From: Synechococcus sp. C9
Lineage (GTDB): Bacteria; Cyanobacteriota; Cyanobacteriia; Gloeomargaritales; Gloeomargaritaceae
Direction: 5' to 3'
DNA: 64,000 nt
NCBI RefSeq assembly: GCF_022984075.1
Contig: NZ_JALAAD010000001.1
Coordinates: forward strand, 910,455-974,454
Shown here: positions 938 through 61,523 of the stretch, piece by piece
Layout of the letters: every line of letters begins with the position of its first letter
Position numbering within the stretch: the first letter of the stretch is position 1
Notes under the pieces: generated by a model
The model's input: the letters and a program-made list of their open reading frames with translations, nothing else
What the model was told of the DNA's origin: nothing
The model's database searches: none
Translations under genes and position numbers: made by a program

Positions 938-1537
938 TCAGCCGTAGATTTTGACCCGGTAATTGCCCAGAGCGTCTCGGTCTTTTAATTCCATGAAGCG
1001 TAGCCCTGTCGTGCCTTCGATGGAGCCGGGATAGCACAGGATGGTGGGTACCTTTGTCTTGCCGTGCAATTTGTCGAGCAACAGGGACACCTGAAAAATG
1101 CCCGGTGACATCGCTGCCACCCGAGTTAAAAAGACCACGGAGTTTTCCGGGTTGATCCCTGCGAGCCGGTCAGCCAGAAAGTCCCAGAGCGGTACCCAGA
1201 CCTTGTTGGACAGATAGGTGGTGACTTGCCGCTGTGCCTCCAGGTATCCTCGCTCTTTTTCTAGGGCGACCACAGCCTCAAAGCCCTCATCCTCATCCTG
1301 TTGGCTAACCTTTGCCAATGCCCCCCAGAGCAACTCTGACATCGGGATCATGTGAACTATCTTACCGATGGCTTCCAGGCGAGTGGCGAGTAATTTTGTG
1401 TCTTGACGAAGTTCCCATTCATCAGTAGGGTTGTGGCGCAGGATGGCAAACGGCAAATCATGGTACACGCTGATGCGTGGCGGGTCTGCCTTCAGATCGC
1501 TTTCGAGCAGAGCCATCCTATCTTTGAGCGAGGACAT
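938..1537 (-). CDS. brxB: BrxB (DUF1788), BREX system protein
   Basis: About 199 residues with the DUF1788/BrxB signature late in the protein (FLTRVAAMSPGIFQVS, then GKTKVPTILCYPGSIEG and LRFMELKD). BrxB is a small, conserved BREX component of unclear biochemical role. An upstream start at 1552 is possible, but the ATG at 1537 has a strong GAGGAG seven bases before it, so I prefer that. The start overlaps the end of brxA by 20 bp, which suggests translational coupling. The stop at 938 is followed by the family A MITE and then brxC. Confidence 0.88.
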   Translation of the reverse strand: MSSLKDRMALLESDLKADPPRISVYHDLPFAILRHNPTDEWELRQDTKLLATRLEAIGKIVHMIPMSELLWGALAKVSQQDEDEGFEAVVALEKERGYLEAQRQVTTYLSNKVWVPLWDFLADRLAGINPENSVVFLTRVAAMSPGIFQVSLLLDKLHGKTKVPTILCYPGSIEGTTGLRFMELKDRDALGNYRVKIYG

Positions 1538-2357
1538 TGGCGTACTCCTCAAGGGTGTTGGCAGGAAAGGTTAACCGGGTAACACTTCCAGCGGCATGAT
1601 ATTCAAGCAGTTCGCGCTGGTGGGCTTCAAACAGGAATCGCTCAACCCCCTCCCTCGCCAGAAAAAATAACTTCCAGTCCGGTAGCTCCAGCAGTTTGGC
1701 TCCCGATGGTTGATGTTGCTTAAGGTAAAAAACGATGTAGGCGAAGGCTTCTGTGGGCAGAAACGGCGGGGCAATTTTTTTATTTACCGTCCCTTGCAGG
1801 ATGCCGAAATCCCGTAGCGTTGCCAGAATGCTGCGGACAACTCGCAAAAGCGTCGTTTCCGACCAGTTTTTTGTAAGCTTGCCATGCACAAGTTTTTCGA
1901 GAGAACCCTGAAACTTCTGCACGTCAATGTCCACCAGCCCCCGTTCCTGCATGGGTACCACAATCTCAGTCACAGCATCATGGAGCAAGGGATCCGCACA
2001 GGTTGCGTGGAAGTAAAGGATACGTTCCAAAGCGACGGCAGGAAACTTTCTCCGCACGAGTGACACCAAAGCCTTCGTGACACACTCCTCGGCGAGATAC
2101 CGCTGGCGGAAGATGGCTAAGACGTCCTCAACTCGGGAACGGGAAGCCTTGCCAAACAAGTTGTCCCGTCGCATACGTTCCATGTTCTCAGCAATGGAGG
2201 CATTGGTATCCCAGTGGAGGAGAAACGTTTTTGTATCTCCAAGTAGCGCTCCTGCCTTGATAATCTTGGACGAGTATGCAAGGGCAGACCAATGCCGCTT
2301 TTCAGTGGTCGCTTGCTTGCCTTGCCCCTTACTCACTGTCGGTGACATCATCAGCAT
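1518..2357 (-). CDS. brxA: BrxA (DUF1819), BREX system protein
   Basis: About 279 residues from the ATG at 2357; ATGs at 2351 and 2348 are alternatives. The open frame continues up to 2519, but the extra 54 residues are low-complexity (SFSFSF) and end in a MITE, so I do not include them. The protein fits the DUF1819/BrxA family: first gene of BREX operons, all-alpha with a winged-helix-like part, able to bind DNA in characterised members. Features: WSALAYSSKIIKAGALLGDT near the N-terminus and FLPTEAFAYIVFYLKQ in the C-terminal third. It overlaps brxB. The promoter must lie in 2358-2520 or inside the MITE cluster upstream. Confidence 0.85.
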   Translation of the reverse strand: MLMMSPTVSKGQGKQATTEKRHWSALAYSSKIIKAGALLGDTKTFLLHWDTNASIAENMERMRRDNLFGKASRSRVEDVLAIFRQRYLAEECVTKALVSLVRRKFPAVALERILYFHATCADPLLHDAVTEIVVPMQERGLVDIDVQKFQGSLEKLVHGKLTKNWSETTLLRVVRSILATLRDFGILQGTVNKKIAPPFLPTEAFAYIVFYLKQHQPSGAKLLELPDWKLFFLAREGVERFLFEAHQRELLEYHAAGSVTRLTFPANTLEEYANVLAQR

Positions 2358-2521
2358 TGCACTCTCGCTTGTCCGTTGGCGCCCCTCATACTTTAACAAT
2401 GTGGATGTTCCATGCTTTCCATGTTCTATAGCAATCTTAAATGAGAATGAAAATGAAATAGTGCTGGCTTTTGTGCCACCCATGCCCCTGGCTCTTGTGA
2501 ATATTTGTTCACCAATCAATT

Positions 2522-2581
2522 AGGGGCACCTCTTTCAAAGTTAGCGGTCACAGGAGCACCCCCGCCCTTGGTTCTGGGTAA
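2522..2581. mobile_element. Truncated family A MITE (left half)
   Basis: Begins AGGGGCACCTCTTTCAAAG and runs through the core to TTGGTTCTGGGTAA. At that point a family B element begins and the right half of family A is missing. Probably a family A copy interrupted and then partly deleted. Confidence 0.65.
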
Positions 2582-2682
2582 TATAGCAGTCCTAAATGAG
2601 AATGGAATAGGAGTCGCAGGGGCACCGCTCCCGTCCTTGGTTCTGGGGAATTTCTGTTGCGTAATAGTTTGGGATTGCTATA
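2582..2682. mobile_element. Family B MITE upstream of the SDR gene
   Basis: 101 bp from TATAGCAGTCC to GGGATTGCTATA, the full length seen in the other complete family B copies. The core reads GTCGCAGGGGCACC...GTCCTTGGTTCTGGGG. It abuts a half family A element on the left and lies about 20 bp before the SDR start. Confidence 0.75.
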
Positions 2683-2705
2683 GTTAAAAAGCCCTATTCC
2701 CATCC

Positions 2706-3518
2706 ATGACCAAACGCTCCATGCAATTTACCTATGCGGATAAAACTGCCCTAGTCACGGGAGCCTCCACAGGCATCGGTGCAGTTTTTGCCCAAGAATT
2801 GGCACAACGGGGGTGTTCCCTAATCCTCACCGCCCGCTCCCAAGACCGGTTAAATCTCCTGGCACATCAATTACAACAGCAGTATAAAATTAATACATGG
2901 GTTATCCCAGCGGATTTACAACAGCCCGCCGCTGTGGCGGATTTGATCCAAGCGATTCAGGGGCAGGCGCAACCGGTGGATATTTTGGTGAATAATGCCG
3001 GATTTAGTACCCAGGGTGCATTTCACACGATTGATCCAGAGCAGGAAGCGGCTTTGATTCAAGTGAATGTGGCGGCCTTGGTGGCGTTGACCCACGCTTT
3101 TTTGCCGGGGATGGTGGAACGGCGTTCTGGCTTGGTGGTGAATGTCGCCTCGGTGTTGGGATTTTACCCGCTCCCCTATCAGGCGGTGTACTCTGCAAGT
3201 AAAGCGTTTGTCCGGTCATTGACTGAAGCACTCTGGGCGGAATACCAGGGTTCCGGGGTGCAGTTTTTTGCCCTCTGTCCTGGCCCGACGGCGACGGAGT
3301 TTTTTCAGCGGATGGGGAAAGACCTACGGATGCAGAAAATGTCCCCCGAAGCGGTGGTGCGCTTTGCCTTTCGGGCGATGGAACGGGGGGCACCTTGGGG
3401 GATTCCGGGCTGGCAAAATCGTTTGCTGAGTGGGTGGTTACCGGCTATGACCCCCCGCCCGTGGCTCCTCAAGCAGTTAGCCCAAGTCAGCCGCCGCCTC
3501 TACGACATCAGCGGTTAA
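2706..3518 (+). CDS. SDR family NAD(P)-dependent oxidoreductase
   Basis: 270 residues, the classical short-chain dehydrogenase length. The Rossmann glycine motif [11 protein letters not shown] is at about residue 19, NNAG at about 97, the catalytic serine in NVASVLGF at about 147, and the YSASKAF (YxxxK) pair at about 161. The C-terminal part ([11 protein letters not shown]) resembles the DltE/YqjQ-like subgroup of SDRs acting on lipophilic or acyl substrates, but the substrate cannot be read from sequence. ATG at 2706 is used; a second ATG at 2721 is possible. Its 3' end overlaps the convergent obgE by 42 bp. Confidence 0.85.
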
Positions 3519-4511
3519 GGACAACTTTTGCCACACCTGCTGGAGCATTGCCGTTATCCCCACACCGGTGACAGCGGAGATCAAACACACGGGATTGTAG
3601 TTTGACAAAATCTGGACAATGTCCTGAAGGGTATCCCCAGGGGGCAGGGCATCAATTTTGTTCAACACGATCAATTCCGGGCGTTCCGTGAGGGGCTGAC
3701 CCAACTGGGGCGTGTACTGCGCCAATTCATTCCGAATCGTGTGGTAATCCCCCACCGGGTCGGGGGCGGTGCTGTCCAGCAGATGGATTAACAGGCGGGT
3801 GCGTTCGATGTGGCGCAAAAAGTCAAACCCCAAGCCCACCCCCCTATGGGCACCGGCAATCAACCCCGGAATGTCGGCAAAAACCGTACCGTCCCCCTGG
3901 GGATTGGCCACGACCCCCAGATTGGGTACCAGGGTGGTGAAGGGGTAGTCGGCAATTTTCGGTTTGGCGGCGGAAATGCGGCTGATTAGGGTGGATTTGC
4001 CCGCATTGGGTAGCCCGACGATGCCCACCTCGGCCAGGAGTTTCAATTCCAGGCGCAGGCGGCGAAATTCCCCCGGCAGTCCCGGCAGTGCGTAATCCGG
4101 TGCCCGGTTGTGGTTGCTCAAAAAATGGCGGTTGCCCAAGCCCCCTTTGCCCCCCTGGGCGACCACCACGGTTTGCCCCGGTGTGACCACATCGGCGACC
4201 AATTCCCCCGTGTCCGCATCCGTAATTAACGTACCGCAGGGAATGGGAATCACCCGGTCTTGGCCACTGGCACCGGTGCAGTTATTCGGCCCCCCCCGTT
4301 GACCATCCTCCGCTTGAAAATGCCGTTGGTAGCGAAAATCCAGCAGGGTACTGCGCCCCGTTTGCGCCTGTACCAGCACATCCCCCCCTTTGCCGCCATT
4401 GCCCCCGGCAGGCCCCCCGGCGGGCACATACTTCTCCCGACGAAACGCCACAATGCCATCCCCCCCTTTGCCGCCCTGGACGGTGATTTCCGCCTGGTCA
4501 ATGAACTGCAT
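3477..4511 (-). CDS. obgE: Obg/CgtA GTPase
   Basis: 344 residues. Residues 1-157 form the glycine-rich Obg fold ([28 protein letters not shown]). The G domain follows: G1 GLPNAGKST near 166, G3 [13 protein letters not shown]4 NKID and G5 SAVTGVG. Obg is an essential GTPase that works in 50S ribosome maturation and stress responses. The C-terminal OCT domain of some Obg proteins is absent; the protein ends soon after G5. Transcribed away from rpsP, with which it shares a 70-bp divergent promoter region, and convergent with the SDR gene. Confidence 0.95.
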
Positions 4512-4579
4512 GGTACTATCGAGTTAGTTCGTGGTAAAATTCATATCCTAGTGGAAATTTTAAGGGAATGGATTGATTC

Positions 4580-4840
4580 ATGGTCAAACTACGGCTAAAG
4601 CGCTACGGGCGTAAGGGTCAGGTCTCCTACCGGATTGTGGTGACTCCGGCTCTGTCCCGGCGGGATGGGCGGGCGTTGGAGGAGGTGGGTTTTTACAACC
4701 CCCGCTTGAGTGACCCGGCCCAACAGACCCGCTTGAATGTCCCGGCCATTCTCAAGTGGCTGAAGCAGGGGGCGCAACCAACCCCCACGGTACGGAGTAT
4801 TTTGGCGAAGGCGCAGATTTTTGATCAACTCCATGCCTGA
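4580..4840 (+). CDS. rpsP: 30S ribosomal protein S16
   Basis: 86 residues beginning [20 protein letters not shown], the S16 N-terminal signature, with the conserved R(D)GR and GFYNP segments ([18 protein letters not shown]). A component of the small ribosomal subunit. It overlaps the following KH-domain gene by 8 bp, the common bacterial rpsP-khpA arrangement. Confidence 0.96.
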
Positions 4841-14987: not shown

Positions 14988-16029
14988 TCCCACCGCCGAG
15001 CAGGACATCGTTCTGATAAAATACAGCGGCTTGCCCCGGTGTAACGCCAAATTGGGGCGTGGCAAACGTGACCTGTACCCGGTCTGTATCGGTAGGAATC
15101 ACCCAGCAATCCACCGCCAGGGCTTGGTAACGGATTTGCACCTGGGCGGGAATGGGCGTGGTGGGCGGAGCCATGCTCACCCAATTCAGACGGTCAACCT
15201 GGCATCCCGCTGACAGGGCTTCCTCCCGGGAACCGACAATCACCCGGTTATGCGCCGCATCCAACGCCAGGACGTACAGGGGTTCGGGGGCGGCAATCCC
15301 CAGCCCTCGCCGTTGCCCCACCGTGTAATGATGGATGCCCGTGTGCTGTCCCAACACCTGCCCTTGCCGGTTGACAATCTCCCCCGGTTGGGTGGGCAAA
15401 TAGCGGTCCAAAAACGCCTGCATCGAGCCGTGCGCTTCCACCAGACACAAATCCTGACTTTCCGGTTTGGTCGCCGTCGCCAGCCCATAGCGAGCCGCCA
15501 GTTCCCGGGTTTGGGTTTTGGTGTATTCCCCCAGGGGAAATAGGGTCGCCGCCAACAGGTCTTGGGTCAGGGTGTAGAGAAAATAGGACTGGTCTTTAGT
15601 GCGATCCACCGCCCGGCGCAGTTCGTAGCGTTCGGTCACAGGGTTATAGGTAATGCGGGCGTAATGACCCGTCGCAATTTGGTCAATGCCCCAGGTGGTT
15701 TGAGCGTACTGCAACATCGGGGCAAACTTCACCCAGCGGTTGCACTGGGAGCAGGGCAGGGGGGTAATGCCTTGACCATAGCCCGCCACCAGGTAATCCA
15801 TGATGTGTCCCCGGAAGACCTCCCGCATATCCACCACGTGATGGGGAATGTTAAGTTGTTCACAAATCCGGGCGGCATCCACCATCCCCTCGCTACAGCA
15901 CTGCCCCTTCCCCGGCATCAACCAAAGGGTCACGCCGATCACCTCATACCCCTGTGCCACCAAACAAGCCGCCGCTGTGGAGCTATCCACCCCCCCCGAC
16001 AGACCGACCACCACCCGTTTTCCTGCCAT
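14962..16029 (-). CDS. mnmA: tRNA-specific 2-thiouridylase
   Basis: 355 residues. The PP-loop [12 protein letters not shown] is at the N-terminus; the catalytic cysteine lies in [11 protein letters not shown] near 100 and the second in [12 protein letters not shown] near 196; [14 protein letters not shown] is the conserved C-terminal-domain entry. MnmA thiolates U34 of tRNA-Lys, -Glu and -Gln. Convergent with ribBA. Confidence 0.95.
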
Positions 16030-16187
16030 GTACCCTGATCCCCGCCCCGCAATCGCTCAATGAAACGTGATCAATTTTCAGCCACATGAGAATCTCGCCA
16101 TTGATCATTATGACAAATCATGACCAAGCGGTACCTGGATCGTTTTTGGGCAATTGCATGGGAATTGTGAGCGAAACTTTGCTACTT

Positions 16188-16298
16188 GGGCACCTCTATT
16201 TATTTGAAACAATCGAAGGTTATCTCGCTGAAATGCTGATACCATCGAAAACCAAAGGCGGGGGATACCCCCTGCGACCTAATTTTTAGAAGTGCCCT
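16188..16298. mobile_element. Family A MITE
   Basis: 111 bp, GGGCACCTCTATT... to ...TTAGAAGTGCCCT, inverted relative to the other copies. It belongs to a subtype with GCGAGATAACCTTC near one end, like the copies at 790 and 37515. A 67-residue open frame crossing it (16086-16289) is not credible as a gene. Confidence 0.8.
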
Positions 16299-16504
16299 AC
16301 TTAAAATCCTATGCTTAGAAAGTTAATGCTTAAAAAAGTCAGGGATCACCGAGTACCGCTCTGGTTTTGCCGCATTGCTGTTGGCAGTCAGCGATAGATG
16401 GTTTCGAGAGAATACCGATGTTACACCCCTACGCTCCTAAGATGGGTGATGCCACCCCCCGCAAACCGCTGGGCTTTACCATACACTGATAGTATTTCAG
16501 GGTC

Positions 16505-25761: not shown

Positions 25762-26718
25762 TCAGACCCGTCCCAACGCCAATCCCACCACCAACATTCC
25801 CAGGACAAAAAAGGGCTGGGCACTGGCTTGGTATTTCACATCATTTGCCAGGGGGTCACGCAAAAAATACATATCTTGAAACGTGATTTGGGGAATCACC
25901 AACAGCAATAAAATGGTGGCATAAAGCTGTTGACCAATGGTGATCAAATAAACCGCCACCCCGATTTGGAATAAATCAATCATGCCCGCACTAATCCAAG
26001 CCGCCCTTTGCACCCCAAATTGCACCGGTAGGGAGGCCAAACCCAACTCCCGATCCCCTTCAATACTCTTAAAATCATTCACCACCGCAATCCCCAACCC
26101 CGCCAAACTATAGAACAAAGTGAGAATCACAATGGTTGGATTCAAGGTGCCAAATAGGGCATGACCCGCACACCAGGGCAGGGCAATATAACTCGCCCCC
26201 AAAGCGTAATTTCCCAGCCAGCCATTTTGTTTCAATTTCAACGGTGGGGCTGAGTAAATAAACGCCAAAAATGTCCCAATAACCGCAATCGTGGTAATCA
26301 CCGGCCAGGACTGCCCCGACCAAATATCTAAAAATAAAGCCAACCCCAGACCCGCCAGCAACAACAACCAAATTTGGGCGATCACTTGCCCCAGGGGAAT
26401 CGCCCCAGAGGGAATCGGTCGGTAGGGTTCATTAATCGCATCAATGTCCCGGTCATAAAAATCATTCAACGTCTGGGTATAACCAGTCATCAACGGCCCC
26501 GACAGCAACATACAGGTCAAAACTTTCAAAATATCCTCCCACCGCCATTGAAATCCCCCCGAGGACGCACTGCCACACAAGACCCCCCAAATCAGGGGAA
26601 TCCAGGTAATGGGTTTCATCAATTGCAACCGCAAGCGCCACTTAGGTACGTTTTGCACCTGCGCCCCCTTCATCCCCAGCATTTGCCGCACCTGGGCTTG
26701 GCTTTCTGCTTCACTCAT
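25762..26718 (-). CDS. chlG: Chlorophyll synthase
   Basis: 318 residues, a UbiA-type prenyltransferase with eight or nine membrane helices. The prenyl-diphosphate motif NDFYDRDIDAINEPYRPIPS is near residue 85, and the second motif NDFKSIEGDRELGLASLPV near 207. It attaches phytyl or geranylgeranyl to chlorophyllide, the last step of chlorophyll a synthesis. The N-terminus (RQMLGMKGA) matches cyanobacterial ChlG, not the bacteriochlorophyll BchG start. Confidence 0.95.
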   Translation of the reverse strand: MSEAESQAQVRQMLGMKGAQVQNVPKWRLRLQLMKPITWIPLIWGVLCGSASSGGFQWRWEDILKVLTCMLLSGPLMTGYTQTLNDFYDRDIDAINEPYRPIPSGAIPLGQVIAQIWLLLLAGLGLALFLDIWSGQSWPVITTIAVIGTFLAFIYSAPPLKLKQNGWLGNYALGASYIALPWCAGHALFGTLNPTIVILTLFYSLAGLGIAVVNDFKSIEGDRELGLASLPVQFGVQRAAWISAGMIDLFQIGVAVYLITIGQQLYATILLLLVIPQITFQDMYFLRDPLANDVKYQASAQPFFVLGMLVVGLALGRV

Positions 26719-26868: not shown

Positions 26869-26969
26869 TATAGCAATCCTAAATGAAAATAGAATAGGGG
26901 TCGCAGGGGCACCGCCCCCGTCCTTGGTTCTGGAGAATTCTTGTTTGTTAATCAAGTAGGATCGCTATA
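26869..26969. mobile_element. Family B MITE
   Basis: 101 bp, TATAGCAATCCTAAATGAAA... to ...AATCAAGTAGGATCGCTATA, complete. It stands in the opposite orientation to the copy at 58794. Confidence 0.82.
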
Positions 26970-27004
26970 TTAAGAATTCCACTTAATTAACCAGTAAAAA
27001 TTCT

Positions 27005-27124: not shown

Positions 27125-27217
27125 CTACAGAATCAAGTAGGGAGACAACACCAATTCTAAAATTAGTTAAGATTGCTATCATTAAGAGAGCAAGGTAACC
27201 CCTGTGGGAGTTCAGCC

Positions 27218-27982
27218 ATGACGATTGCAACGGCTCACCCCAACCTCACCCTCCCCGACCACACGCAGTTACCGGAGAGCGATGGCACCTTTGTGAAAAA
27301 TTTTCAGGAACACCCCCAGAGTTTGCTCTTGACGGATTCCATTTATCCAGTTTTGGACAGTCTGCACCCGGATGGACAGTATGCGATTGGGCAGGATTGC
27401 GGCATCTATTGGCGGCTGGTAGAACCACCGGAGCGGGGAGCGGAAGCCCCAGACTGGTTTTATGTCCCCCATGTGCCCCCCTTGTTGGACGGCAAACGAC
27501 GGCGTTCCTATGTGCTGTGGCAGGAAGTGGTTGCCCCCTTGATTGTGATTGAATTTGTGTCTGGGGATGGCACGGCGGAGCGGGATACAGCCCCCCCTTG
27601 GGAGCGGGAAAACGGTAAACCGGGCAAATTTTGGGTGTACGAGCAGGCGATTCGGGTGCCATTTTACGCCATTTATGAAGTGGACAAAGCCTCGGTTGAG
27701 GTGTACGAATTGGTGGGGAATCGTTACCAGCGGTGTGAGCCAAACCAGCGGGGGCATTTTCCCATTGAGCCGTTGGGTGTGGAGCTAGGGATTTGGCAGG
27801 GCACCTATTTGCATCAGGCATTGCCCTGGTTACGGTGGTGGGATCAGGACGGGAATTTATTGCTCACTGGGGACGAACGGGCGGAGCAGGAAAAGCATCG
27901 GGCGGAGCAAGAAAAACAACGGGCAGAACGTTTGGCGGCGAAGCTGAGAGACTTGGGGGTTGACCCGGATGAGTACTCGTGA
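27218..27982 (+). CDS. Uma2 family (DUF820) putative endonuclease, copy 1
   Basis: 254 residues from the ATG at 27218; an in-frame upstream start at 27173 is less likely because the third unit lacks it. PD-(D/E)xK fold: PDWFYV (~90), LIVIEFVSGD (~118), and KFWVYEQAIRVPFYAIYEVD (~145) with the lysine and tyrosine of the Uma2 core. The C-terminus carries two RAEQEK(Q/H) heptads and RAERLAAKLRDLGVDPDEYS, a charged helix. Uma2 proteins are abundant in cyanobacteria and usually of unknown role; nuclease activity is inferred from the fold. Confidence 0.85.
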   Translation: MTIATAHPNLTLPDHTQLPESDGTFVKNFQEHPQSLLLTDSIYPVLDSLHPDGQYAIGQDCGIYWRLVEPPERGAEAPDWFYVPHVPPLLDGKRRRSYVLWQEVVAPLIVIEFVSGDGTAERDTAPPWERENGKPGKFWVYEQAIRVPFYAIYEVDKASVEVYELVGNRYQRCEPNQRGHFPIEPLGVELGIWQGTYLHQALPWLRWWDQDGNLLLTGDERAEQEKHRAEQEKQRAERLAAKLRDLGVDPDEYS

Positions 27983-28129
27983 CGCACCCCTCAATTACTA
28001 CAACGTTAACTGGCGTGCCAGAGGCATACAAAAATTCTGCAGAATCAAGTAGGGAGACAACACCGATTCTAAAATTAGTTAAGCTTGCTATCGTTAAGAG
28101 ATCAAGGTAACCCCTGTGGGAGTTCAGCC

Positions 28130-28915
28130 ATGACGATTGCAACGGCTCACCCCAACCTCACCCTCCCCGACCACACGCAGTTACCGGAGAGCGATGGTAC
28201 CTTTGTGAAAAATTTTCAGGAACACCCCCAGAGTTTGCTCTTGACGGATTCCATTTATCCGGTTTTGGACAGTCTGCACCCGGATGGACAGTATGCGATT
28301 GGGCAAGATTGCGGTATCTATTGGCGGCTGGTAGAACCGCCGGAGCGGGGAGCGGAAGCCCCAGACTGGTTTTATGTCCCCCATGTGCCCCCCCTGTTGG
28401 ACGGGAAGCGGCGGCGTTCCTATGTGCTGTGGCAGGAGGTGGTTGCCCCCTTGATTGTGATTGAATTTGTGTCTGGGGATGGCACGGCGGAGCGGGATAC
28501 AGCCCCCCCTTGGGAGCGGGAAAACGGTAAACCGGGCAAATTTTGGGTGTACGAGCAGGCGATTCGGGTGCCATTTTACGCCATTTATGAAGTGGACAAA
28601 GCCTCGGTTGAGGTGTACGAATTGGTGGGGAATCGTTACCAGCGGTGTGAGCCAAACCAGCGGGGGCATTTTCCCATTGAGCCGTTGGGTGTGGAGCTAG
28701 GGATTTGGCAGGGCACCTATTTGCATCAGGCATTGCCCTGGTTGCGTTGGTGGGATCAGGACGGGAATTTATTGCTCACTGGCGACGAACGGGCAGAACA
28801 GGAAAAACAACGGGCAGAGCAGGAAAAACAACGGGCAGAACAGGAAAAGCATCGGGCAGAACGTTTGGCGGCGAAGCTGAGAGACTTGGGGGTTGACCCG
28901 GATGAGTACTCGTGA
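28130..28915 (+). CDS. Uma2 family (DUF820) putative endonuclease, copy 2
   Basis: 261 residues, nearly identical to copy 1. The visible difference is the C-terminal heptad tract: three RAEQEK(Q/H) repeats instead of two before RAERLAAKL. Upstream sequence is shared with copy 1 down to the SD area, so both should have the same promoter or be cotranscribed. Confidence 0.85.
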   Translation: MTIATAHPNLTLPDHTQLPESDGTFVKNFQEHPQSLLLTDSIYPVLDSLHPDGQYAIGQDCGIYWRLVEPPERGAEAPDWFYVPHVPPLLDGKRRRSYVLWQEVVAPLIVIEFVSGDGTAERDTAPPWERENGKPGKFWVYEQAIRVPFYAIYEVDKASVEVYELVGNRYQRCEPNQRGHFPIEPLGVELGIWQGTYLHQALPWLRWWDQDGNLLLTGDERAEQEKQRAEQEKQRAEQEKHRAERLAAKLRDLGVDPDEYS

Positions 28916-29066
28916 CGCACCCCTCAATTACTACAACGTTAACTGGCGTGCCAGAGGCATACAAAAATTCTGCAGAATCAAGTAGGGAGACAACACCGAT
29001 TCTAAAATTAGTTAAGCTTGCTATCGTTAATTAACAGATCAAGGTAACCCCTGTGGGAGTTCAGCC

Positions 29067-29894
29067 ATGACGATTGCAACGGCTCACCCCAATCTCACCC
29101 TCCCCGACCACACGCAGTTACCGGAGAGCGATGGTACCTTTGTGAAAAATTTTCAGGAACACCCCCAAAGTTTGCTCTTGACGGATTCCATTTATCCGGT
29201 TTTGGACAGTCTGCACCCGGATGGACGCTATGCGATTGGGCAAGATTGCGGTATCTATTGGCGGCTGGTAGAACCGCCGGAGCGGGGAGCGGAAGCCCCA
29301 GACTGGTTTTATGTTCCCCATGTGCCCCCCCTGTTGGACGGTAAACGGCGGCGTTCCTATGTGCTGTGGCAGGAGGTGGTTGCCCCCTTGATTGTGATTG
29401 AATTTGTGTCTGGGGATGGCACGGCGGAGCGGGATACAGCCCCCCCTTGGGAGCGGGAAAACGGTAAACCGGGTAAATTTTGGGTGTACGAGCAGGCGAT
29501 TCGGGTGCCATTTTACGCCATTTATGAAGTGGACAAAGCCTCGGTTGAGGTGTACGAATTGGTGGGGAATCGTTACCAGCGGTGTGAGCCAAACCAACGG
29601 GGGCATTTTCCCATTGAGCCGTTGGGTGTGGAGCTAGGGATTTGGCAGGGCACCTATTTGCATCAGTCATTGCCCTGGTTACGGTGGTGGGATCAGGATG
29701 GGAATTTATTGCTCACTGGGGACGAACGGGCAGAACAAGAAAAACAACGGGCAGAACAGGAAAAGCACCGGGCGGAGCAGGAAAAACAACGGGCAGAACA
29801 GGAAAAGCATCGGGTGGAGCAGGAAAAACAACGGGCAGAACGTTTGGCGGCGAAGCTGAGAGACCTGGGGGTTGACCCGGATGAGTACTCGTGA
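29067..29894 (+). CDS. Uma2 family (DUF820) putative endonuclease, copy 3
   Basis: 275 residues. Same body as copies 1 and 2 with a few substitutions (DGRYAIGQ for DGQYAIGQ, HQSLPW for HQALPW), and five heptads RAEQEKQ/RAEQEKH/RVEQEKQ before RAERLAAKL. A 4-bp change in the leader (TTAATTAACAG for TTAAGAG) puts a stop in front of the ATG, which supports the ATG at 29067 as the true start for all three. Confidence 0.85.
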   Translation: MTIATAHPNLTLPDHTQLPESDGTFVKNFQEHPQSLLLTDSIYPVLDSLHPDGRYAIGQDCGIYWRLVEPPERGAEAPDWFYVPHVPPLLDGKRRRSYVLWQEVVAPLIVIEFVSGDGTAERDTAPPWERENGKPGKFWVYEQAIRVPFYAIYEVDKASVEVYELVGNRYQRCEPNQRGHFPIEPLGVELGIWQGTYLHQSLPWLRWWDQDGNLLLTGDERAEQEKQRAEQEKHRAEQEKQRAEQEKHRVEQEKQRAERLAAKLRDLGVDPDEYS

Positions 29895-30022
29895 CGCACC
29901 CCTAACTTGCGGCTAGGAACTTGAATTGAGCATAACAATGCGGAGAGGCGCACCCCCCATAACGAGAGCAATCTCACTGGATTAACGTTAACTGGCGTGC
30001 CAGAGGGATACAAAAATTCTGC

Positions 30023-30082
30023 AGAACCAAAGACTAGGGCGGTACCCCTGCGACCTCTATTCTATGCTCATTTAGGATTGCC
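30023..30082. mobile_element. Family B MITE fragment
   Basis: AGAACCAAAGACTAGGGCGG... to ...CTCATTTAGGATTGCC: the right half of family B, with the left end missing. Confidence 0.6.
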
Positions 30083-36155: not shown

Positions 36156-37053
36156 GAACCTGTTTGCAATCATTTTAAGCGATTCTACGTAGGATTAAGC
36201 GTATGGCACAAATTCTGATTTTTGTTTGACTTGTCTTGATTAAGCCTTCACAGTTTTTCCATAATACTCTGCATTGATTTATCCACGCATTGGTTCTTTC
36301 TACTATCCATCGCTTCGCAATCACCACAAATCCTTGCTTCTGTGGATTCTCTTTCTTCGATTTGGCTTTCTGTTCCGGTGTAATTTTTTTTGATATCTCA
36401 ATGATTATCTTATTCCGCAAAAGTGGTTCCATTTTTTCTATCTCTTCTTCTAAATATCTTTTTTGATAGCCGTTATCTAGTAAAATTGTTACCTCTTGAG
36501 GCAGTTCTAAAAAGAATTGTTTATGCTCTCTTATTATTTCTAATAATCCATGATTGTCGCTCAGGCTTGCTTTACTACATAAGATAAAGTAGGGATTCCC
36601 TAAAGTATCCACCAATAAATGCCGTTTGATTCCGTTAGTGCATTTATAGTGACAAAATCCTTTCGTTTCAATGCCTGCTGTATCTGTGTTCTTCACACAC
36701 ATAGAGTCCCCTATGAGCAAGCTAGGATATTCTTTTTTTTAATCTCTCTCTTTCAATTTTCTCCAATGCTACCAATACCCTTTCCCAAGTACCATTATTT
36801 TGCCATCGCCGAAACTGAGAGTACACAGTCTGCCACTTGGGGAAATCTCGAGGTAAGTCTCGCCATTGACAGCCATTTTTGAGCTGATACATGATGGCAT
36901 TGACGATGGCATGCCTTGAAACTACATGCTTTTTTGTCTTACTCTTTGGTAGATATTGGTCTAAAATCTCAAATTGTGATGCGCTTAAATTGGTTGTGTA
37001 TGTCATTGCTCTACCTGTAATTTCTTTCTCCCAGTATAATTGCAAACAGGTTC
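36156..37053 (-). mobile_element. IS5-family insertion sequence
   Basis: About 898 bp with inverted ends GAACCTGTTTGCAAT / ATTGCAAACAGGTTC, flanked on both sides by TATA (36152-36155 and 37054-37057). Because the target itself contains TATA, the exact duplication (2 to 4 bp) is ambiguous. It is AT-richer than its surroundings. It carries one transposase in two frames. Confidence 0.88.
36175..37006 (-). CDS. IS5-family transposase, two overlapping frames joined by slippage
   Basis: Frame 1 (ATG at 37006 to a stop at 36722) gives MTYTTNLSASQFEILDQYLP with CQWRDLPRDFPKWQTVYSQF, the IS5 N-terminal DUF4096-type domain. Frame 2 (to 36175) has the DDE residues: IGDSMCVKNTD, ILLDNGYQ and VERTNAWINQCRV. 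The frames meet at a run of eight A (36733-36740, minus-strand AAAAAAAAGA). Joining them needs +1 or slippage on the A run, and then gives ...KKEYPSLLIGDS. Either programmed, as in several IS5 subgroups, or a recent mutation; intact coding otherwise suggests a live element. Confidence 0.85.
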
Positions 37054-37514
37054 TATAGCCGTCCTACTTGATTAACGAAGAGAAATTCCCCAGAACCAAA
37101 TATGGGGGTGCCCCCCTGCGACCCATATTCTAAATTCATTCAGATTTACTATAGCAATCCTACTTGATTAACGAAGAGAAATTCCCCAGAACCAAATATG
37201 GGGGTGCCCCCTGCGACCCATATTCTAAATTCATTCAGATTTACTATAGCCGTCCTACTTGATTAACGAAGAGAAATTCCCCAGAATCAAATATGGGGGT
37301 GCCCCCCTGCGACCCATGTTCTAAATTCATTCAGATTTACTATAGCCGTCCTACTTGATTAACGAAGAGAAATTCCCCAAAACCAAATACGGGGGTGCCC
37401 CCCTGCGACCGCTAACTTTGAATTTCATAGAGGTGCCCTTAATTGATACTTAAAAACTCAAGGGTTGTCGGGCATTGTCCCGGTACTTGGTTCTGTAGAA
37501 TTTCGGTATGTTTT

Positions 37515-39695: not shown

Positions 39696-40568
39696 TTAAT
39701 AACATAAATTCCGGGTGGCGGCTAAAAAAATCTCAATACTTTTTAACTCGTCATAGGTTTCCTGAATCTGCTGTACCAGGGTTTGAATGGTGTCCCCGTC
39801 ATTGGCTAACATCGCCTGACTAAGGGTATCAATTTCCGATGCGATGGCGGGATTGGCGGGCTGGTTAGGGGTGGCTTCATTGAAGGCGGGGGTTTGAAAC
39901 AGATGCCCGATTTCTGCCCACAGGGGAGGAGGAAGGGGCAATTCTTGGGCGGGAGATTCCTGTACCTCCGGTGGGGCAACTTCCGGTTCGCCAAAAAGAA
40001 ATGCCACGTTAGATGACGGCAATTCTGACTCACCAGTTATGTCTGTATCTGAATAATCTGAATGTGCGCTTAAATCAACTGATTCCTGCGGCGTTGAGTC
40101 ACTCAAAAAACGTTCCAATTCTCCCCACCCATCCGCAGATTCCTGCACCTCCGGCGGCGCAACTTCCGGTTCGCCAAAGAGAAATGCCACGTTAGATGGC
40201 GGCAACTCTGACTCACCAGTTATATCTCTATCTGAATCTGAATGTGCGCTTAGATCAACCGATTCCTGCGGCGTTGAGTCACTCAAAAAACGTTCCAATT
40301 CTCCCCACCCATCCGCAGATTCCTGCACCTCCGGCGGCGCAACTTCCGGTTCGCCAAAGAGAAATGCCACGTTAGATGGCGGCAACTCTGACTCACCAGT
40401 TATATCTCTATCTGAATCTGAATGTGCGCTTAAATCAACCGATTCCCCAGGTTCGACAAATAAATTCTCCAGTTCGCTGAGGGTCTCAGCAGATTCCGCC
40501 CCAGACAACCCACTTGCCCAGTTCAGGAAATCTAAATCCAAATCGTCTGAAAATGGGGATTCCGCCAT
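39696..40568 (-). CDS. Acidic protein with a 60-residue tandem repeat, unknown function
   Basis: 290 residues; I recognise no family. The N-terminus is MAESPFSDDLDLDFLNWASG. A repeated block of 60 residues (ESVDLSAHSDSDRDITGESE, LPPSNVAFLFGEPEVAPPEV, QESADGWGELERFLSDSTPQ) occurs twice almost identically, plus a third partial, diverged copy. The region is strongly acidic and Ser/Pro rich, so probably disordered, with a regular hydrophobic NVAFLFGEPE and WGELERFL in each unit that could be short binding motifs. The C-terminal ~70 residues are helical (AIASEIDTLSQAMLANDGDT). Stands alone, divergent from fbp. Confidence 0.75.
   Translation of the reverse strand: MAESPFSDDLDLDFLNWASGLSGAESAETLSELENLFVEPGESVDLSAHSDSDRDITGESELPPSNVAFLFGEPEVAPPEVQESADGWGELERFLSDSTPQESVDLSAHSDSDRDITGESELPPSNVAFLFGEPEVAPPEVQESADGWGELERFLSDSTPQESVDLSAHSDYSDTDITGESELPSSNVAFLFGEPEVAPPEVQESPAQELPLPPPLWAEIGHLFQTPAFNEATPNQPANPAIASEIDTLSQAMLANDGDTIQTLVQQIQETYDELKSIEIFLAATRNLCY
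39951..40440 (-). repeat. 180-bp intragenic tandem repeat
   Basis: Units 40261-40440 and 40081-40260 are near-identical (60-base blocks match exactly), and 39951-40080 is a diverged partial copy. In frame, so gain or loss of a unit adds or removes 60 residues. Confidence 0.9.
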
Positions 40569-59051: not shown

Positions 59052-61523
59052 ATGTTATCCACCTCACACAATGCAGTTTTACCCTTAGAACCACATACGG
59101 ACAGCGTTAACATCCATAGTTTTAATGCAATCGCTGGGTTGTCAAATGGTGATTTATTGAGTCCTGTTCAAACTCACCTACAAGCCATTGCCAGTAGTGA
59201 TGATTTCTTTGCCCGAGTTCTTGGAGAAAAAGCCAATTCTCCCGCAATCCAGGCGATTCATTCCCAATGGGCAGTTGGTGATTTCTCTACCTTTCCCAAG
59301 CTCCAAGTTGTAGAGGCTTTTAGTACCTATAGTGAGACCACCCAAACAATTTATCTCTCTGATGCGCTCCTGACTAATGGGGCAGATGACGGTACATTTG
59401 GGGCGACGGGGGTTTTGATTGAGGAGACGTTCGCCTGGTCAAATCGTTTGGTCGGTGCAGATACCGCTGGGGATGAAGTGGGGCATCAAGAACAAGAAAT
59501 TCTCTGGTGGGACGAACCGCCTATTTCTGTGGCGTTTGTTAGCGATTGGGCTGGCAATAGCTTTGAGACCGCCCGTGGTATTACCCTGGGTTCGACCCCC
59601 ACGACCTTTACGGATTGGGTGGGCAGTACAGATACCTTTGATTTCTATCGTTTTAGCCTCAACCAGCCCAGTATGGTGAATTTCACCCTCAATGGGTTGA
59701 CAGCAGATGCGGACCTCTGGCTATACGATCACCAAGGGAATGTCATTCAGGGTTCGTGGAACTGGGGAACCATTCCTGAAAGTATTTCCCAGTCTTTGGG
59801 GGCAGGCACCTACTTCCTCCTGGTGAACCAATACAGTGGTTCCACCTTCTACAACCTCACCGCTGTGGCGACGAACCCTGATTTAGCTGGGAATAGCTTT
59901 GTGAACCCCCGTGATATTACCCTGGGCTTTACCCCCACGACCTTTACGGATTGGGTGGGCAGTACGGATACCTATGATTTCTACCGTTTTAGCCTCCATG
60001 AACAGAGCCTGGTCAATTTCACCCTCAATGGGTTGACGGCAGATGCGGACCTCTGGCTGTTTGATTACCAAGGGAATGTCATTCAGGCTTCATGGAACCG
60101 GGGAACGACCCCCGAAAGTATGTTCCGGTCTTTGGACGCAGGCACCTACTTCCTCCTGGTGAATCAAGCCATTGGTGACACTTTCTACAATCTCACCGCT
60201 GTGGCGACGAACCCCGATTTAGCTGGGAATACCCTCGATACAGCCCGGAATATTACGCTAGGTGCTATCCCCACCACCTTTACCGATTGGGTGGGCAGTA
60301 CGGACACAAACGACTACTATCGGTTCACGTTGCCGACCACCAGCACGATTAATCTCTCCCTCACGGGCTTGAGTGCAGACGCAGACCTGCAATTACTCAG
60401 CAGTACCGGTTCGGTGATTCAAAATTCTTGGAATTGGGGCACACAAGATGAAGGTATCACCAGCCAGTTGAGTGCAGGCACCTATTTCATCAGGGTTTAC
60501 CCCTATGGAAATGCCAACACCTATTACAACCTCAATGTTGCCGCTACCGAGCTGATTCCACCCCCTCCCACCACTGGGTTTAACGCCACCTACGGCTATG
60601 GTTTGGTCAACGCTGGGGCGGCTGTTGCTAGAGCCATTGGGCAAACGTTCCCCTTCCCAGATGTGCCTAATTTAGGGGGCAATAACTGGGGCAATGACCT
60701 GGTGAATGCTCCAGAAGTATGGGCACAGGGCTATACAGGCAACGGGGTGGTGGTGGCAGTGCTGGATACGGGCGTGGATTACAACCATGCTGACTTGAAT
60801 GACAACATTTGGCGTAATCCTGGGGAAATTGCCGGTAATGGCATCGACGACGACGGCAATGGTTACATTGATGATGTCCACGGTTGGGATTTTATCAACA
60901 ACGACAACAATCCCTTAGACAGAAATGGGCATGGCACCCATGTCGCCGGGACGATTGCCGCTGAAAATAATGGCTTTGGGGTAACCGGAGTGGCGTACAA
61001 TGCTCGGATTATGCCAGTACAGGTGCTGGGTGATAATGGCTTTGGAAGTAACCGTGCTATTGCCAATGGGATTCGTTACGCTGCCAACAATGGTGCCCAG
61101 GTCATCAACCTCAGTTTAGGTTCAGACCTCCCTTCGCCAGAGATTTACTCAGCGATCCAATACGCTACCAGCCTTGGTGCGGTCGTGGTGATGGCGGCGG
61201 GCAATGACGGTGATCCTCGACCGGACTATCCAGCTTTCTACGCCACTGACTTTGGTCTATCCGTGGGCGCTGTGGACATGAACCGGAACCTTGCTTGGTT
61301 CTCCAACCGGGCTGGCACGAACAGCGCTATGCGTCATGTGGTTGCCCCAGGGGTGAGCATTGTCAGTACGGCGCCGAACGACAGATACGCTAGTTACAAT
61401 GGCACTTCCATGGCAACGCCTCACGTTGCTGGTGTGGTTGCCCTGATGCTGAGTGCTAATCCGAACCTGACCCCTGCGCAAGTCCGGGACATGATCACAA
61501 GCTCAGCGGTACCGTTGGTTTAA
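59052..61523 (+). CDS. S8 (subtilisin-like) serine peptidase with three N-terminal PPC domains
   Basis: 823 residues, AAGGAG before the ATG. Residues 1-165: a domain seen in cyanobacterial extracellular proteins, with a metalloprotease-like remnant VLIEETFAWSNRLVGADTAG in place of EEIGH. Then three PPC repeats (~168, ~279, ~393) each with TDWVGSTDT(F/Y/N)DFYRF and ADADLWL. Peptidase ~550-823 with D in VAVLDTGVDYNHADL (~572), H in NGHGTHVAGT (~626), oxyanion N in AAGNDGDPRPD and S in NGTSMATPHVAG (~786). No signal peptide is visible, so export would be by a non-Sec route. PPC ahead of the peptidase reverses the usual order. Confidence 0.92.
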   Translation: MLSTSHNAVLPLEPHTDSVNIHSFNAIAGLSNGDLLSPVQTHLQAIASSDDFFARVLGEKANSPAIQAIHSQWAVGDFSTFPKLQVVEAFSTYSETTQTIYLSDALLTNGADDGTFGATGVLIEETFAWSNRLVGADTAGDEVGHQEQEILWWDEPPISVAFVSDWAGNSFETARGITLGSTPTTFTDWVGSTDTFDFYRFSLNQPSMVNFTLNGLTADADLWLYDHQGNVIQGSWNWGTIPESISQSLGAGTYFLLVNQYSGSTFYNLTAVATNPDLAGNSFVNPRDITLGFTPTTFTDWVGSTDTYDFYRFSLHEQSLVNFTLNGLTADADLWLFDYQGNVIQASWNRGTTPESMFRSLDAGTYFLLVNQAIGDTFYNLTAVATNPDLAGNTLDTARNITLGAIPTTFTDWVGSTDTNDYYRFTLPTTSTINLSLTGLSADADLQLLSSTGSVIQNSWNWGTQDEGITSQLSAGTYFIRVYPYGNANTYYNLNVAATELIPPPPTTGFNATYGYGLVNAGAAVARAIGQTFPFPDVPNLGGNNWGNDLVNAPEVWAQGYTGNGVVVAVLDTGVDYNHADLNDNIWRNPGEIAGNGIDDDGNGYIDDVHGWDFINNDNNPLDRNGHGTHVAGTIAAENNGFGVTGVAYNARIMPVQVLGDNGFGSNRAIANGIRYAANNGAQVINLSLGSDLPSPEIYSAIQYATSLGAVVVMAAGNDGDPRPDYPAFYATDFGLSVGAVDMNRNLAWFSNRAGTNSAMRHVVAPGVSIVSTAPNDRYASYNGTSMATPHVAGVVALMLSANPNLTPAQVRDMITSSAVPLV

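What the first reader, a model, noticed from the sequence alone, without database searches (positions are those of the whole stretch)
27129..30019. Tandem triplication of a Uma2 nuclease gene with graded heptad tails (2, 3, 5)
The three proteins share nearly every residue, but the C-terminal RAEQEK(Q/H) heptad tract grows from two to three to five units, by exact 21-bp steps. The coiled tail is the only fast-changing part, so selection or slippage acts on tail length, perhaps tuning oligomerisation. Function of Uma2 amplification in cyanobacteria is not known.
Basis: partly seen in the sequence, partly recalled or inferred. Interest (0 to 1): 0.65.

Follow-up and report, generated by a model that had tools for sequence, protein, structure and literature searches.

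The report
Nuclease copies with different tail lengths
A cyanobacterium keeps several almost identical copies of a DNA-cutting protein that differ only in how many times a seven-residue unit is repeated in the tail; the same pattern recurs in other cyanobacteria, which suggests that tail length may decide which copies pair with each other.

Summary
Three tandem Uma2 nuclease genes (27218-27982, 28130-28915, 29067-29894) have 99-100% identical bodies and 2, 3 and 5 C-terminal heptads. A fourth copy elsewhere in the genome has 1. Bodies differ almost only at synonymous sites (dN/dS 0.00-0.06), so these are constrained genes, not assembly duplicates. The sister species carries two copies at the same locus, with 1 and 3 heptads. 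Another Uma2 array in this genome has 0,2,4,3,1; its sister array has eight intact copies with 0,1,4,5,6,7,8,9, and the one broken copy repeats a number already used (4). Near-identical Uma2 pairs in other cyanobacteria also differ by multiples of seven residues. In four sets of four or more copies no two intact copies share a number (P about 1e-5 to 1e-3, post hoc); among 17 pairs there are two ties, no better than chance. AlphaFold makes the tail one long helix. The closest precedent is Rpn, another PD-(D/E)XK nuclease, whose repeat number sets which inhibitor binds; one cyanobacterial Uma2 carries Rpn's DUF4351 domain after its heptads. I favour a length-coded self-pairing tail (moderate confidence). 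Pairing, toxicity and an internal start are not shown.

The parts
27218..27982 (+). Uma2 gene A, 254 aa, 2 heptads
   Evidence: ORF; PF05685 69.9 bits against cut-off 27
27878..27919 (+). heptad tract of A (2 x 21 bp: RAEQEKH RAEQEKQ)
   Evidence: sequence
28130..28915 (+). Uma2 gene B, 261 aa, 3 heptads
   Evidence: ORF; PF05685 69.8 bits
28790..28852 (+). heptad tract of B (3 x 21 bp)
   Evidence: sequence
29067..29894 (+). Uma2 gene C, 275 aa, 5 heptads
   Evidence: ORF; PF05685 70.1 bits
29727..29831 (+). heptad tract of C (5 x 21 bp, one unit RVEQEKQ)
   Evidence: sequence
29718..29864 (+). predicted single continuous helix of the tail of C (residues 218-266)
   Evidence: AlphaFold2 model, pLDDT about 82-97 in the tail
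29832..29891 (+). conserved C-terminal cap RAERLAAKLRDLGVDPDEYS after the heptads (C; the same in A, B and the unlinked copy)
   Evidence: alignment of 52 relatives: L264, R265 and G268 invariant
27128..28039 (+). repeat unit 1 (leader CAGAATCAAGTAGGG... + gene A + 3' flank)
   Evidence: direct repeats, spacing 912/937; junctions
28040..28972 (+). repeat unit 2 (gene B)
28973..30009 (+). repeat unit 3 (gene C; its 3' flank differs from A and B and matches that of the unlinked copy D)
26869..26972 (+). dispersed ~104-bp MITE-like repeat left of the array (21 full or partial matches in the window)
   Evidence: blastn
30010..30081 (-). inverted copy of part of the same dispersed repeat, right of the array
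   Evidence: inverted repeat I1, 72 nt, 88%

Best explanation
These are Uma2-type PD-(D/E)XK nucleases whose long C-terminal helix is a self-pairing module with a length code. The nuclease body is held constant by purifying selection, and perhaps by gene conversion between copies. The heptad tract gains and loses whole 21-bp units by slippage or unequal crossover. Because two parallel helices match best when they have the same number of heptads, each length variant would pair mainly with itself (as a dimer, or with its own tail fragment). Near-identical paralogues in one cell could thus act as separate, non-mixing nuclease units. The likely purpose is controlled, defence-like toxicity, as in Rpn. 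SHOWN: gene set, heptad counts, constraint on the body, steps of seven, recurrence in independent arrays, no equal numbers in the sets of four or more. INFERRED: helix pairing, length-matched specificity, nuclease activity, toxicity and defence.
For: Four copies here with 1, 2, 3 and 5 heptads and dN/dS 0.00-0.06 between bodies. An independent Uma2 subfamily array in the same genome: five copies with bodies 97-99% identical in protein and 0,2,4,3,1 heptads. Sister species: eight intact copies (bodies 96.6-99.4%) with 8,9,5,4,1,7,6,0; the only repeated number belongs to a copy whose reading frame is broken. The sister species' copy of the window locus: 1 and 3. G015: a set of four, all different. 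Sets of four or more: 0 ties in 50 pairs, P = 1e-5 under the family's own length distribution, 1.3e-3 under ten equally likely lengths. Every non-zero tail difference is a net multiple of 7 aa. Tail predicted as one helix in both subfamilies. Precedent: in Rpn, adding one repeat to the inhibitor abolishes inhibition and adding it to both partners restores it (PMC10327210). One cyanobacterial Uma2 carries DUF4351, a domain that in some species annotates Rpn's inhibitor, directly after its heptads.
Against: Two-copy sets show 2 ties in 17, what chance gives, so avoidance rests on four sets, tested post hoc. A slippage-prone repeat makes lengths diverge without selection. An Rpn-like array in the same genome has two copies of equal length. 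The window's heptads offer one alanine per seven residues as hydrophobic position, a weak coiled coil. No conserved ATG or GTG internal start was found, and short heptad-tail ORFs elsewhere are mostly gene remnants, not stand-alone inhibitors. No multimer prediction could be run.
Confidence: 0.42

Rival explanations
1. Neutral slippage. The 21-bp repeat gains and loses units quickly with little effect on function, while purifying selection and gene conversion keep the body the same. Different lengths in neighbouring copies are simply the outcome of a fast mutational clock.
For: The repeat has a 21-bp period, so slippage alone gives steps of 7 aa in frame. Pairs tie at the chance rate (2 of 17). 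Tail lengths vary widely (0-9) across cyanobacteria. Bodies cluster by species, as concerted evolution predicts.
Against: No ties in 50 pairs within the sets of four or more (P 1e-5 to 1.3e-3). The only duplicate number in the eight-copy array sits in a broken gene. One tail class (4 heptads) is 96% identical in DNA between the two species while the bodies are 90% identical, so this tail persisted rather than being reshuffled.
Confidence: 0.33
2. The helix is a ruler: heptad number sets the distance between the two nuclease or DNA-contact sites, and so the target or the gap in the target, as the TAEL repeats of EcoR124I/II do. Each copy would cut a different site.
For: Each heptad adds about 10 angstroms to a predicted continuous helix. 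In EcoR124I/II an extra repeat changes the recognised gap (PMC10327210).
Against: No specificity subunit or methyltransferase was noted beside the array. The helix is C-terminal with only a short cap, so there is no second DNA-binding domain for it to space. Ten length classes in one cell would need ten tolerated targets.
Confidence: 0.12
3. A full Rpn-type toxin-antitoxin: the tail is also translated on its own from an internal start just before the heptads and inhibits the full-length nuclease of the same length.
For: TTG codons are enriched at the two leucines just before the heptads: 84 of 114 genes have one, against 31 of 91 Asn-Leu-Leu sites in other genes. After correcting for codon context, TTG is still 43 against 23 and 34 against 18 expected. 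A Uma2-DUF4351 fusion exists.
Against: TTG is not invariant and there is no conserved ATG or GTG. Most of the apparent synonymous-constraint island disappears after codon-context correction (P 8e-5 weakens to 0.014). No ribosome-profiling data were available.
Confidence: 0.13

Closest known systems
Uma2 / DUF820 / COG4636 family (PF05685)
   Same: Body scores 70 bits (cut-off 27) and has the PD-EXX-K active site described by Feder and Bujnicki (PMC551604). Abundant in cyanobacteria, with tandem paralogues; proposed solo toxin in cassettes of paralogues (PMC2701414).
   Different: I found no description of the variable heptad tail, nor of near-identical copies distinguished by heptad number, in the papers searched.
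Rpn (recombination-promoting nuclease, COG5464) with the intragenic antitoxin RpnS
   Same: PD-(D/E)XK nuclease, tandem arrays by direct duplication, whole-repeat length variation in a C-terminal helix; one cyanobacterial Uma2 has DUF4351 after the heptads.
   Different: Different nuclease family; 7-residue instead of 4-residue units; the window proteins lack DUF4351; internal start not established; the variation is described here mainly between paralogues within one genome.
EcoR124I / EcoR124II (TAEL repeats in the type IC specificity subunit)
   Same: Change in the number of a short helical repeat alters what the protein recognises (cited in PMC10327210).
   Different: There the repeat spaces two DNA-recognition domains in a restriction-modification system; nothing of that kind is seen here.
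Uma2 and Rpn expansions in Thermosynechococcus (PMC9403480)
   Same: Both nuclease families expanded, Rpn in tandem arrays.
   Different: In the passages I read, tail lengths were not analysed.

Membership tests
Uma2 (PF05685, COG4636) | profile score above the curated cut-off | tested here: met
   69.8-70.1 bits against 27 for A, B and C
Uma2 (PF05685, COG4636) | PD-EXX-K active site (Lys migrated) | tested here: met
   P78, D79 and E112 invariant and K137 at least 90% in 52 relatives; motif from PMC551604
Uma2 (PF05685, COG4636) | fold of solved Uma2-like structures | tested here: met
   Foldseek best hit 9y1l, putative restriction endonuclease domain protein, E 5e-5, probability 1.00; moderate TM-score (0.53 on target)
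Uma2 (PF05685, COG4636) | nuclease activity | not testable with these tools
   needs purified protein
Rpn (COG5464) with RpnS | Rpn-family nuclease domain | tested here: not met
   Pfam reports Uma2 and no Rpn-type domain for the window proteins at E up to 1
Rpn (COG5464) with RpnS | DUF4351-like C-terminal domain | tested here: not met
   absent in A, B and C; present in a Uma2 of G020, L237:6623-7501, 70 bits
Rpn (COG5464) with RpnS | repeat-number variation in the C-terminal helix | tested here: met
   7-aa units, 0-9 copies; Rpn has 4-aa units
Rpn (COG5464) with RpnS | internal translation start before the repeats | tested here: inconclusive
   no conserved ATG/GTG; TTG enriched
Rpn (COG5464) with RpnS | tail inhibits the full-length protein; anti-phage protection | not testable with these tools
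   experiment needed
EcoR124-type helical ruler | repeat spaces two target-recognition domains of a specificity subunit | tested here: not met
   tail is C-terminal with only a 20-aa cap; a single Uma2 domain

The most novel reading that the evidence does not exclude
Heptad number is a length code. A cell keeps a repertoire of otherwise identical nucleases, each carrying a different number of heptads, so that each recognises only itself. Length classes are kept distinct within arrays and can outlive species splits, while bodies are homogenised within each genome.
Probability: 0.28. Interest if true: 0.82.

Novelty: new variant of a known kind. Interest (0 to 1): 0.62.

Why it matters
Uma2 is one of the most expanded and least understood nuclease families of cyanobacteria: 55 profile matches, 54 above the cut-off, in this 2.96-Mb genome. 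If tail length decides which copies interact, it explains why so many near-identical copies are kept. It would extend a rule so far tested in E. coli Rpn (repeat number sets partner specificity) to a second nuclease family. Arrays with eight or more length classes would be a ready-made system for testing how helix length encodes binding specificity.

Tried and rejected
Assembly artefact: set aside, because the copies differ at many synonymous sites, the flanks are unique and a sister genome has the same locus. Recent identical duplication: rejected, dS about 0.08-0.11 between copies. Internal start codon with a conserved ATG or GTG: not found. A 42-nt island of synonymous constraint before the heptads looked strong (P 8e-5) but mostly reflects codon-pair context such as avoidance of CCA-TGG. 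Stand-alone tail proteins like rpnS genes: the short heptad ORFs inspected are mostly remnants of Uma2 genes, one being a DUF29-like N-terminus fused to a tail (the DUF29 identity is from memory). Strict 'never equal' rule: rejected, ties exist in G015 (L233, beside an assembly gap), in G020 (L237) and in an Rpn-like array (L241). Phage-borne relatives: none; plasmid relatives are distant, below 40% identity. PADLOC and NCBIfam: no hits. Antisense ORFs of 191 and 162 aa over the gene bodies: treated as frame by-products.

Full report
WHAT IS THERE. The window holds three tandem + strand genes of 254, 261 and 275 codons at 27218, 28130 and 29067, each inside a repeat unit beginning CAGAATCAAGTAGGG. 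All are Uma2 (PF05685, 70 bits against a cut-off of 27). The first 220 residues are 99-100% identical; the C-terminus has 2, 3 and 5 copies of RAEQEK(Q/H), followed by the cap RAERLAAKLRDLGVDPDEYS. A fourth copy with one heptad lies 311 kb away, with a 3' flank like that of gene C.

THE GENES ARE CONSTRAINED. Between bodies there are 11.5-15.5 synonymous and 0-2.5 nonsynonymous differences (dS 0.08-0.11, dN/dS 0.00-0.06). The copies are therefore neither an assembly echo nor decaying duplicates. Tail length changed several times while the protein body hardly changed. The PD-EXX-K catalytic residues are conserved (motif in PMC551604). The body matches the fold of a solved putative restriction endonuclease domain protein, 9y1l.

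THE SISTER SPECIES. G002, a single-contig genome of the same genus, has the same left flank (the 318-aa UbiA-type prenyltransferase gene at 25762-26718 and further genes) and two copies with 1 and 3 heptads. They are 99.5% identical to each other in DNA and 94-95% to the window copies. Copies thus resemble their neighbours in the same genome more than those in the sister, that is, concerted evolution or repeated amplification, yet tail numbers differ within each genome.

A SECOND, INDEPENDENT ARRAY. At G000:C1:530.9-535.1 kb five copies of another Uma2 subfamily (97-99% identical bodies) have 0,2,4,3,1 heptads. The sister species has eight intact copies with 8,9,5,4,1,7,6,0 (bodies 96.6-99.4%). 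A ninth copy with a broken frame has 4, the same as an intact neighbour. Each array also has one gene with a different body. The 4-heptad tail is identical in protein and 96% identical in DNA between the two species, while the bodies are 90% identical and group by species; this is suggestive, from one class only.

FAMILY-WIDE PATTERN. In relatives at 60% identity or more, tails run from 0 to 8 heptads by the script's count, and the distance between conserved anchors falls in one class modulo 7 in 61 of 71 cases. Among near-identical tandem copies in other cyanobacteria every non-zero tail difference is a net multiple of 7. In this genome, Uma2 pairs and arrays without heptad tails diverge in the body instead (about 60-94% identity).

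DO COPIES AVOID EQUAL NUMBERS? In four sets of four or more copies there are no ties among 50 pairs. The chance of that is 1e-5 if numbers are drawn from the family distribution and 1.3e-3 if ten lengths are equally likely. Among 17 two-copy sets there are two ties, expected 1.7-2.6. Overall P is 4e-4 to 0.02. The test is post hoc and the sets were chosen because they form arrays, so I call this suggestive. An Rpn-like array in the same genome has a tie (246, 258, 258, 250 aa).

STRUCTURE. AlphaFold2 predicts the tail as one unbroken helix in both subfamilies (residues 218-266 and 189-240). In the second subfamily the heptads carry a leucine every seven residues, a normal zipper pattern; in the window genes the only hydrophobic position is alanine. 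No multimer could be modelled.

MECHANISM. The best-matched precedent is Rpn (PMC10327210): a PD-(D/E)XK nuclease in tandem arrays whose C-terminal helix varies by whole repeats, dimerises and is the docking site of an inhibitor encoded by the same sequence; changing the repeat number in one partner destroys recognition and changing it in both restores it. A Uma2 of G020 carries heptads followed by DUF4351, a domain that annotates RpnS in some species, so the two tail types occupy the same place. I therefore favour length-matched self-pairing. Whether a tail-only product exists is open: there is no conserved ATG or GTG, TTG is enriched just before the heptads even after codon-context correction, but most of the apparent constraint vanished with that correction. 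Neutral slippage remains a serious rival.

PRIOR KNOWLEDGE. Uma2 has been called a likely solo toxin forming cassettes of paralogues (PMC2701414) and a PD-(D/E)XK nuclease family with tandem duplications (PMC551604). I found no report of heptad-number variation in Uma2 in the open papers searched; subscription papers were not covered.

Noticed in passing
L241 (G000:C1:470500-477500), 1481-4729: Array of four near-identical DUF2887+DUF4351 (Rpn-like) genes, 246, 258, 258 and 250 aa, differing by 4-aa QEGR repeats; two have equal length.
   Followed up: partly
L218 3399-4276 (G002): The only Uma2 copy in the eight-copy array that duplicates another copy's heptad number has a disrupted reading frame; its C-terminal ORF with 4 heptads stays open.
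   Followed up: partly
L237 6623-7501 and about 15500-16460 (G020): Uma2 genes with heptads followed by a DUF4351 domain, a direct link between Uma2 and Rpn tails; the two copies have tails of equal length.
   Followed up: partly
window 26869-26972 and about 20 other places: Dispersed ~104-bp MITE-like repeat (ends TATAGCAATCCTA / TAGGATCGCTATA); it flanks the Uma2 array in inverted orientation and forms a tandem array at 37053-37410.
   Followed up: partly
window 39954-40446 and 59543-60304: Long tandem repeats of 180 bp and 336 bp.
   Followed up: no
L251 (G029:C23), minus strand from 644: ORF that looks like a DUF29-type N-terminus fused to a Uma2-type heptad tail and cap, suggesting that the tail moves as a module.
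   Followed up: no
G000:C1:318500-323500 (L047): Array of four tailless Uma2 genes (175-180 aa) whose bodies are 83-92% identical, in contrast to the heptad-tailed arrays where bodies stay 97-100% identical.
   Followed up: partly
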